A program made the position numbers and the translations under genes. Below, one piece after another: positions 37,801 to 49,888 of a DNA stretch of 64,000 nt. The notes beneath the pieces were generated by a model. It saw nothing but the letters and a program-made list of their open reading frames with translations. It was not told the origin of the DNA and did no database searches. This stretch comes from Tubiluchus corallicola. Lineage: Eukaryota; Priapulida; Priapulimorpha; Priapulimorphida; Tubiluchidae. The stretch spans positions 62,001-126,000 of the forward strand of contig JAQGDQ010000043.1 in NCBI GenBank assembly GCA_030141605.1, in the 5' to 3' direction. Each line of letters starts with the position of its first letter. The first letter of the stretch is position 1.

Positions 37801-40800
37801 ACTAGTCGGTTTCATTTGTAGCTGTATCCATTTTTAATTACAGTTACATGCATTACTGACATGTGCAATGTTTATAAGATGCAATTCGCAATTTCATTTA
37901 TGTTACACTGCAGTATTTTGTAGTAATGCATACTCTGGCTACTGCAGCGCCACAAGTTTTTATTTGTACTACGTGCTTTTCGACGCAGGTGGTTCGAGCT
38001 TCTGGAACATCCGATGCAACTATCAAATATTTTACTGATTTTGTAGACAAGCTTGGTATGCAGAGCATCGTTGCTAAGGTAAGTATTGCACCCTGCATGT
38101 TTTTTAGGGGGCTGATGCATTATCAACTTTGTAGTCCCACAAAAATTGTGCATCAAGGTCACTACAAGATATTCTCAGCCGACTTCTTGGCTCTTTAGCC
38201 AAATTATTGGCATGTAAATTGAAAGCATGAAATAATAGTTTCCACCCTTCACAAAAATAAAAATACAGACAAATGAAAACAAATATTGCAGATAGTTTTG
38301 AATGGCAGTTGGGCCAATTTTATTTGTGCATCAGCACCCATTTCTTTACCAAGGGCACCAAGGGCTGAGTTACTGCTTGTTGTTGTTTATTTGGTTATTA
38401 ATTCAAGTGCATTTACTGTTTTTCGGATATTTCTTTACTTTCTCTCACAGATCATTAAGAGAGTGTTCTTGCATTATATCGTTTCAATTTGTTTTCAGCT
38501 TATTTTGTGGTTATCTTCACATTTCTTATTTTGACATTTTATTTAGTTTAGTATAAACAGTAGCAGCTAAATTAAACATTTTCTGGTGCTAGAGGTTTGA
38601 AATCCCTGTAAGAGTAGATTGATTTAGACGAACTTAATTGCATGATGTAATGAAATTTTAAAATTAATTAAAAATAACTTTCCATTTATTTTGTGTCATC
38701 ATATCTTTCACCTGCATGCTTTGTTTTTTCTGTAAACTGTGAGTTTTTGCTATTAATGAGTGACATGTTTTATAGTATTATGAGCTGGCTTTTAGGTCAT
38801 GTAATTACATTTTTAATAGATAGATATTTCGTGATGATAAGCTGTATGTGCAATTCTGATAAGTATATATTAATTTTCATTGAATTTTGTAATTTATTAC
38901 TTAATGTTTATTATTTTTTATTGAAGAGCTAGTACTGTTTACAAAAGATTATAAGTAATAGTATCAGTGATAGTAAGTAATAAGCAAAAAGTAATAGTTC
39001 CTTGGATACAGTGGCGGGAAAAGCATGGCTGTCCCGCTCAAGGAAGTCCCATCGCCCACATTAAGCAAATTAAAACCAAAAATTGGAACAAACACGCATA
39101 ACCTAGACAATAATGCCAAGAAATAGTTCCTTAGTCTTAGAAAATAACTTATTTGTTTACTTGGTTCTGTAAACAATTCCTTGATTTTGACTTGTGTGTT
39201 TTAGTTTCTTTAACATTCATTTTAATACTAGCAACATTTTTTCTCTAGTGACTGAAAAGGATTTGTCTTCAATTCGACATAAATTGAATACGTAAAACAG
39301 AACGAACATATTATTCTCTTTATGATCAATCTTTATGTATCTTACTGTCTTTTTTATTTAAATTTTTTTTTGTTACATGGTCACAACCATTTTATGCTCT
39401 TTTTTCTTTGGCATGCTTTTGAAATAAAATTTGTGTTTTACAGGATACACCAGGCTTCGTAGTTAATCATTTAATCTATCCCTACATCTGCGAAGCCATG
39501 CGAATGTACGAACGAGGTAAGCTAGCGCTAACTTATGAAATGCACCTATTAAGGTATTTAGTAACAGTTCCTGATGCGCCTGTCAGTTCTTGATTGTGTT
39601 TAACGACTCAAAAGGTTATTGATTTTATGATATGTTTATGAATTCCTGGTTGTCCTCTGACGTGCTTACTAGTTGTTAACCTGTCTGATGTGACTACCAA
39701 TTTTTCATGTATTTAAACTGTATATGAGGTGCTACTGATTTTCAATTCTGTCTGATGTGCCTACCATATCTTGATTTGCGTGAGAATACTGGGCTATCTA
39801 ATTGTGCCTGATAAATATTTTGTACTGCACATAGTTTATACCATTCTGTTTGATATTTTGATGGTTAAGCGTCATATGCTTTGCCACACGGTTACAATGA
39901 AACAGTCATTTTGTGCCGGTCCATCTGGTTCTTCTAACTATAATACCTAGAAATTTGGTGATATGGAAGTGTCTTACAGGAAATGAAAAATCTTGAGAGT
40001 GACTAGTCTATGATTATAAACATAAACACATTTTTACACATAGAATTTTGACAAATCATTTTATCTAATATTATTTTTACTATGAATCTGTGACACGGCA
40101 TTGAACAACATTAACAGATGTATGGCATGGTGTTTAATCAATTTTATTTGAGCGTCACCTAATAAAGTGTAGTAGTAAAGTGTCAAATGTGAGATTTCTG
40201 CAAATACCCTACAATATGAGAAATCTTTGCACCAAGCATTGTTTATTTTACCTGTCAATGTCTACATAAAATAAACAAAGAATTCTGCTATATGTCTAAT
40301 TATTATTTTAAGATTAATCAGTGAAAAATAATTTTTCTCTTTCTGAAGCTAAGAGTCTTGCATTTGATGTTTCTTAGCTGACCGGTACTGACATTGAATT
40401 GCAAGTTAAAGTACACTACACCTAGTGTCAAAGGGGTTAATTACTGATTTTCTGTCTGTTGGTTTACTATTCTATTAAGGTAAAATTTTTGGAATTGACT
40501 TTGTAATAACATCGCAGTGTTTTCACCTCTGAATGTATTGACAACTCACTATAAAACGGGCTATATAGTATGTGTTTGCTGTGGTTTTTAGCAATCACTA
40601 CTATACTAAAATTGTCGTTTTAGCTTAAGAAAAATTTTCATGTGCTGAGTTGTGTATCAATCAAACATAGTGAGCCCACTTCAGAAAAAATTACGAGTTA
40701 GGAGATTAAAAAATATTTCCTACAAATTCAACTTATTTAATTGGCACATGTAGGTCGTTGATTTTAGTGTCAGCATTTTACGTGAATTTTTGTGTCTAAT

Positions 40801-49888: not shown

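What the first reader, a model, noticed from the sequence alone, without database searches (positions are those of the whole stretch)
39444..49888. HADH with two complete, alternative three-exon C-terminal domains
One N-terminal catalytic half is followed by two full sets of C-terminal exons. Matching exons have equal lengths (73 and 117 nt) and phases, each set ends in its own stop, and each has a downstream AATAAA. Joining exon 5 to 39444 or to 45610 keeps the frame; including both 73-nt exons breaks it. Mixed paths 6a-7a-8b and 6a-7b-8b are also in frame, so up to four enzymes could be made. The C-terminal domain provides the dimer interface and part of the acyl-CoA site, so splicing could tune chain-length preference or make heterodimers. 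I know of no described HADH gene with this layout.
Basis: partly seen in the sequence, partly recalled or inferred. Interest (0 to 1): 0.85.

Follow-up and report, generated by a model that had tools for sequence, protein, structure and literature searches.

The report
HADH gene with two alternative C-terminal ends
A single animal gene for a fat-burning enzyme appears to carry one shared front half and two different, long-preserved back halves, so splicing could build two versions of the enzyme; the layout is real, but no RNA has yet shown that both are made.

Summary
One set of HADH exons 1-4 is followed, same strand, by two complete C-terminal cassettes. Both joins give full-length enzymes (310 and 311 aa), each with its own stop and AATAAA. 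Both cassettes are conserved and old: 70/132 identical residues, synonymous sites saturated, omega far below 1. Genome searches found no second HADH N-terminal half, and none lies in the gap-free 1,134 nt before 5b. So B is either spliced to exons 1-4 or is a recent orphan; I favour splicing (0.68). A new lead: a 24-nt inverted repeat (17 consecutive pairs) joins intron 4 to the stretch upstream of 5b and would loop out exactly cassette A with its poly(A) signal, as in RNA-structure models for Drosophila PGRP-LC and pip. It is unusual against controls, without comparative support. Tandem 3'-terminal cassettes are a known kind; I found none described for HADH in open-access papers. No transcript evidence; dating and the N-half's original partner are unresolved.

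The parts
28817..28924 (+). exon 1 (shared; 108 nt, start codon, NAD-binding GGGLMG motif)
34273..34413 (+). exon 2 (shared; 141 nt)
35406..35563 (+). exon 3 (shared; 158 nt)
37207..37333 (+). exon 4 (shared; 127 nt; Ser/His/Glu corresponding to human Ser137, His158, Glu170); ends in phase 0, branch point
37765..37788 (+). arm 1 of 24-nt inverted repeat, in intron 4
37989..38078 (+). exon 5a (90 nt)
39444..39516 (+). exon 6a (73 nt; Asn corresponding to human Asn208)
41432..41548 (+). exon 7a (117 nt)
43862..43980 (+). exon 8a with stop (119 nt)
44116..44121 (+). AATAAA after cassette A
44512..44535 (+). arm 2 of inverted repeat, between 8a and 5b
45610..45682 (+). exon 6b (73 nt; Asn corresponding to human Asn208)
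46677..46793 (+). exon 7b (117 nt)
49767..49888 (+). exon 8b with stop (122 nt)
50276..50281 (+). AATAAA after cassette B (another at 50347)

Best explanation
It is one mitochondrial-type HADH gene with an old tandem duplication of its last four exons. Exons 1-4 (shared NAD-binding half) are joined either to cassette A (5a-8a, proximal, own poly(A) signal) or, skipping all of A, to cassette B (5b-8b). SHOWN: the exons, phases, stops, intact frames, conservation of both cassettes, and that searches of this assembly found no second N-half. INFERRED: that both joins occur in RNA; that A is the default because it is proximal; that B requires skipping 5a and the A poly(A) signal, possibly helped by pairing of the inverted repeat between intron 4 and the stretch upstream of 5b, which would loop out cassette A; that the two products differ in the dimer interface and in the part of the active-site cleft made by the C-terminal domain, and could form homo- or heterodimers.
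For: Both complete joins are open and full length, 310 and 311 aa. Both C-halves score well over the family cut-off (A 117.1, B 121.7 vs 22.1 bits). Third codon positions agree in only 50/132, amino acids in 70/132; omega=1 rejected (2dlnL 88; the free fit ran to saturation) and dS of 10 or less is disfavoured (kappa fixed at 2). A neutral cassette loses its frame quickly (from B: no stop in 26% of 2,000 simulations at 0.1 changes per site, 1.5% at 0.5). Of 25 C-half columns conserved in 85% or more of 77 bacterial relatives, A departs at 2 and B at 1. The Asn208 equivalent is kept in both. PF02737 search: 11 matches from 45 scored candidates, HADH-type exons 3 and 4 once; human N-half protein search: 11 matches from 14 candidates, HADH-type exons 2, 3 and 4 once. 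Four other loci tested resemble trifunctional alpha, peroxisomal bifunctional, lambda-crystallin and bacterial types; a fifth, C571, is an N-domain at 33% identity. No N in 43981-45114. Inverted repeat: longest exact complement 17 nt; 0/1000 dinucleotide shuffles, 0/214 same-spacing window pairs and 1/1184 random window pairs reach 17.
Against: No RNA or protein data. Donors of 5b (GTAATA) and 6b (GTATCC) are weaker than those of 5a and 6a, though the shared exon 3 donor is weaker still (generic matrix recalled). A poly(A) signal lies between exon 4 and 5b, and the 4-to-5b intron would be 7,781 nt against 655 nt for 4-to-5a. Trees put B with human (printed support 100 without worm; SH-aLRT 91/UFBoot 86 with worm) and A outside, which also fits two old separate genes. 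Identity of the N-half to human (79/151) could fit a partner like A (68/132) or like B (87/132), so it does not show that the N-half was ever B's partner. The genome search is not complete: it missed exon 8b, which is present, and exon 1. The inverted repeat is third in a listing of 36 (25 shown) in that stretch, is one of many possible signals, and has no comparative support.
Confidence: 0.68

Rival explanations
1. Two tandem HADH genes, with exons 1-4 of the second gene lost recently in this lineage: cassette B is a fresh orphan that still looks intact.
For: Trees place B with human (printed support 100) and with human and worm HADH (SH-aLRT 91, UFBoot 86) rather than with A, as expected if A and B were old separate paralogues. 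Weaker donors in 5b and 6b. About half of neutral copies still have no stop at 0.05 changes per site.
Against: No stop, frameshift or lost splice border in the 402 nt of B, no remnant of exons 1b-4b found in the window, and B is the more canonical of the two cassettes (7 private changes against 19 in A). A+B as sisters is not rejected (AU p 0.494).
Confidence: 0.16
2. Assembly artefact: the second gene's exons 1-4 exist in the animal but were dropped or misjoined in the assembly.
For: Assembly has 2,344 contigs; parts may be missing, masked or withheld. The search looks exon by exon and is weak for some exons (exon 2 came up only at E 1.6 and exon 1 not at all; exon 8b was missed).
Against: The stretch 8a-5b is 1,134 nt of unbroken sequence, and a canonical exon 4 should have been found (the one present gives E 1e-14).
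Confidence: 0.1
3. Cassette B is transcribed on its own, or reached by trans-splicing, and yields a C-terminal-domain protein or a hybrid made from two transcripts.
For: A C-terminal-domain chain has been solved on its own (3ctv, 110 residues, listed).
Against: An in-frame TAG lies directly upstream of 5b (sequence) and 5b holds no Met codon; a start inside 6b would leave 5b untranslated, yet 5b has kept its frame and exact borders.
Confidence: 0.04

Closest known systems
[quoted passage not shown]
   Same: Shared 5' part, tandem homologous terminal clusters used as alternatives; an RNA pairing could decide which is reached.
   Different: That paper treats pip as a case of duplicated 3' UTRs/terminal exons; here a beta-oxidation enzyme exchanges its last 132-133 of about 310 residues; four exons per cassette; two cassettes; pairing not tested.
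Human tandem-duplicated exon substitutions (236 events, 77 of them C-terminal; PMC9741552 passages), including PKM
   Same: Homologous exons giving isoforms that differ in one homologous region; enzymes are among them.
   Different: In the passages seen, exchanged terminal regions are often exposed tails, membrane helices, coiled coils or disordered; here it is a whole folded dimerisation domain with an active-site residue.
Mitochondrial HADH (human 1F0Y/3RQS, C. elegans F54C8.1 4J0E)
   Same: Domain order and catalytic residues; B 87/132 and A 68/132 identical to human in the C-half.
   Different: Those are known here as single chains only; A has 19 private changes where B, human and worm agree.

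Membership tests
mitochondrial L-3-hydroxyacyl-CoA dehydrogenase (HADH) | 3HCDH_N plus 3HCDH domains in one chain | tested here: met
   both joins: PF02737 199/200.9 bits, PF00725 121.7/117.1 bits (B/A)
mitochondrial L-3-hydroxyacyl-CoA dehydrogenase (HADH) | catalytic Ser137, His158, Glu170, Asn208 equivalents | tested here: met
   first three in shared exon 4, Asn in both 6a and 6b
mitochondrial L-3-hydroxyacyl-CoA dehydrogenase (HADH) | mitochondrial import, dimer, dehydrogenase activity | not testable with these tools
   about 20-residue N-terminal extension, shared by both forms; no assay
tandem 3'-terminal cassette genes (pip, PGRP-LC type) | homologous terminal clusters in tandem, each with stop and poly(A) signal, behind a shared 5' part | tested here: met
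   no other N-half found, (sharing itself is inferred from position)
tandem 3'-terminal cassette genes (pip, PGRP-LC type) | transcripts that use one cluster or the other | not testable with these tools
   no RNA data held
tandem 3'-terminal cassette genes (pip, PGRP-LC type) | competing or bridging RNA pairing | tested here: inconclusive
   24-nt inverted repeat brackets cassette A; no related genome to test compensatory change

The most novel reading that the evidence does not exclude
One HADH gene has kept two complete, separately conserved C-terminal halves since very early in animal evolution, and an RNA bridge between intron 4 and the stretch upstream of 5b loops out the first half together with its poly(A) site, so that the cell switches the dimerisation and substrate domain of a beta-oxidation enzyme and can mix two kinds of subunit.
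Probability: 0.22. Interest if true: 0.75.

Novelty: new variant of a known kind. Interest (0 to 1): 0.52.

Why it matters
If both joins are made, a beta-oxidation enzyme encoded by what looks like a single gene would exchange over 40% of its chain, including its whole dimerisation domain, by choice of terminal cassette. It would allow a direct test of how far the two HADH domains can evolve apart, whether mixed dimers form, and whether RNA looping can skip a complete 3' end with its poly(A) site. Gene counts would also hide the second enzyme.

Tried and rejected
(1) A as a decayed copy: rejected; A fits the family model almost as well as B and its C-half is as close to 77 bacterial relatives as that of human HADH (means A 0.427, B 0.410, human 0.427, worm 0.427). 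(2) Dating the duplication: trees favour A outside B+human (79 rows, no worm) and outside B+human+worm, but A+B as sisters is not rejected (AU 0.494); unresolved. Five of the 19 A-only residues equal the commonest bacterial residue, a weak hint of an old split. The N-half tree did not even place worm with human, so it is of no use here. (3) Assigning the N-half to A or B by rate: bacterial pairs with a C-half identity like B-human (0.63-0.69) have N-half identity at or below 0.523 in 38.5% of 156 pairs, and those like A-human (0.50-0.55) in 61.5% of 117 pairs; inconclusive. Worm-human is 58/153 (N) and 82/132 (C), so a weaker N-half need not mean a foreign one. (4) Inverted repeat as part of a dispersed repeat: the 17-mer occurs 5 times exactly in the genome, two of them here, and 883 times with up to 2 mismatches (control 90). 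The flanks of the two copies here match those of the three other exact copies by no more than 9-nt pieces, while those three resemble each other over longer stretches; so insertion of that repeat is not shown. By eye no target-site duplication flanks the arms. (5) First duplex score used 20 single-base shuffles (-39.3 against mean -32.5, lowest -38.1); replaced. (6) Organism: no COX1 match in the assembly; the animal was not named. (7) First bacterial scan gave no relative; the second, with the alignment, kept the best 80 of 228 loci. From these 77 proteins were extracted by a motif filter (3 dropped); 75 entered the means, 77 those, and 25 the trees. (8) Promoter scan of 43990-45115 is of bacterial type and not informative for an animal gene. 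(9) Structure prediction was not run: spliced products are not contiguous in the DNA, and the HADH fold is not in doubt.

Full report
WHAT IS THERE. The window lies in an unnamed 343.5-Mb genome of 2,344 contigs, window = contig C1248:62001-126000. It is taken to be an animal from the intron-rich gene and a rhodopsin-type receptor next door; this is inference. A tblastn of human HADH against the window finds exons 1-4 once and exons 5-8 twice. The corrected exon table: exon 1 28817-28924, 2 34273-34413, 3 35406-35563, 4 37207-37333; cassette A 37989-38078, 39444-39516, 41432-41548, 43862-43980; cassette B 45115-45204, 45610-45682, 46677-46793, 49767-49888. All introns are GT-AG. It is 90 nt like 5a, in phase 0 on both sides like 5a, and 14 of 30 residues match human against 9 of 30 for 5a. 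So the duplicated unit is exons 5-8 and the shared part ends at exon 4.

READING FRAMES. 1-4+A gives 310 aa and 1-4+B 311 aa, both without a stop before the end. 5a-6b, 6a-7b and 7a-8b also give 311 aa; 5a+5b gives 341 aa; 6a+6b, 6a-5b and 7a-5b break the frame. AATAAA lies at 44116 after A, and at 50276 and 50347 after B.

BOTH CASSETTES ARE CONSERVED AND OLD. A and B share 70 of 132 residues; codon positions 1, 2, 3 agree in 88, 95 and 50 of 132. A codon model puts dS beyond what can be measured: the free fit runs to saturation, and with kappa fixed at 2, dS 10 is 2.5 log units worse than dS 20 and dS 3 is 10.4 worse. dN is about 0.35-0.40, and omega = 1 is rejected (2dlnL 88). Under no constraint, simulated copies keep an open frame in 26% (from B) or 24% (from A) of 2,000 runs at 0.1 changes per site and in under 2% at 0.5. 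Both score high for the family. At 25 C-half columns conserved in 85% or more of 77 bacterial relatives, A departs at 2, B at 1, human at 1, worm at none. Where the other three of A, B, human and worm agree, A differs at 19 positions and B at 7, so A is the more changed one; among its changes are the human positions 206, 221, 256, 260 and 276 of the precursor. The Asn208 equivalent is kept in both, and Ser137, His158 and Glu170 equivalents lie in the shared half. Roles of His158, Glu170 and Asn208, and the dimerisation domain, are from passages of PMC10988713; [quoted passage not shown]

IS THERE A SECOND N-HALF? PF02737 gave 11 matches from 45 scored candidates in the genome and the human N-half 11 matches from 14. 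HADH-type exons 3 and 4 and 2, 3 and 4 appear only in this gene. Exon 1 was not listed by either search, and the C-terminal search (7 matches from 16 candidates) missed exon 8b, which is present; so short exons can be missed. Peptides from five other loci were compared with solved structures: C1198 is closest to trifunctional alpha, C1744 to the peroxisomal bifunctional enzyme (of its two copies one was tested), C2291 to lambda-crystallin, C197 to bacterial 3-hydroxybutyryl-CoA dehydrogenase. C571 is closest to HADH but at 33% over the N-domain only, in one open frame; its contig showed no C-terminal match. I do not regard any of these as exons 1b-4b. Two further matches (C1997 and C498, E 3.2 and 4.4) were not followed. 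Between 8a and 5b there are 1,134 nt without N and without a match to exons 1-4 by human, worm or own N-half. Absence in an incomplete assembly is not proof.

A POSSIBLE BRIDGE. Looking once, in intron 4 against the stretch upstream of 5b, for pairing of the kind reported for PGRP-LC and pip, I found a strong complement. It is 37765-37788 with 44512-44535, 22 of 24 positions, 17 consecutive, duplex energy -30.7 kcal/mol. It encloses exons 5a-8a and the A poly(A) signal. Longest exact complements of 17 or more: 0 of 1,000 dinucleotide shuffles (highest 16), 0 of 214 equally spaced pairs in the window, 1 of 1,184 random pairs. It is third in a listing of 36 inverted repeats (25 shown) in 37334-45115; the first (31 nt, 94%) looks like the ends of a transposon-like element inside intron 7a. 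The 17-mer also occurs in a dispersed repeat elsewhere, but the flanks here do not resemble that repeat. This is a lead, not evidence of function.

WHAT IT MOST LIKELY IS. A single HADH gene with alternative 3'-terminal cassettes, confidence 0.68. The main rivals are a recently orphaned second gene (0.16) and an assembly omission (0.10). Phylogeny and rate tests do not decide between an old paralogue pair and an in-gene duplication.

WHAT IS KNOWN. [quoted passage not shown] In human, 236 tandem-duplicated exon events include 77 C-terminal ones (PMC9741552, passages). For HADH I found no such layout: the listings of paper searches (15 of 353, 2 of 2 and 10 of 32 papers shown) held nothing of the kind by title and abstract start; PMC8116494, checked by passages, concerns HADHB, PMC9155244 was seen only as a listing, and 'HADH2' in PMC1559703 is, from its title, ABAD/HSD10, a different enzyme. 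The library is open-access only, so this does not show absence from print. I therefore call it a new variant of a known kind.

Noticed in passing
window 48514-49107 (-): Uninterrupted ORF with a rhodanese domain (PF00581, 52.2 bits) on the opposite strand inside intron 7b.
   Followed up: partly
window 50573-51787 (-): Long open frame of a rhodopsin-family receptor (PF00001, 81 bits), tail to tail with the 3' end of cassette B.
   Followed up: partly
window 41807-43068: Element with 31-nt inverted ends (94% complementary, 1.2 kb between) in intron 7a; by eye it looks like a degenerate pogo/Tigger-type DNA transposon (label recalled).
   Followed up: no
window 35750-37050: Long degenerate tandem array with the recurring phrase 'ctctatgtcagtagtctcagagag' in intron 3 of the HADH gene, seen by eye.
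   Followed up: no
G000:C197:57337-58188 (-): Uninterrupted 337-aa open frame closest to bacterial 3-hydroxybutyryl-CoA dehydrogenase: bacterial contaminant or transferred gene.
   Followed up: partly
G000:C571:35674-36189 (-): Open frame (302 aa) with an HADH-like NAD-binding domain (33% to human) in which the residue aligned with the catalytic His is Arg; no C-terminal family match on its contig.
   Followed up: partly
L090, L091, L092: Dispersed repeat containing TTGTTGTCAGT(T/G)GTCAC; 883 places for the 17-mer with up to 2 mismatches against 90 in the control.
   Followed up: partly
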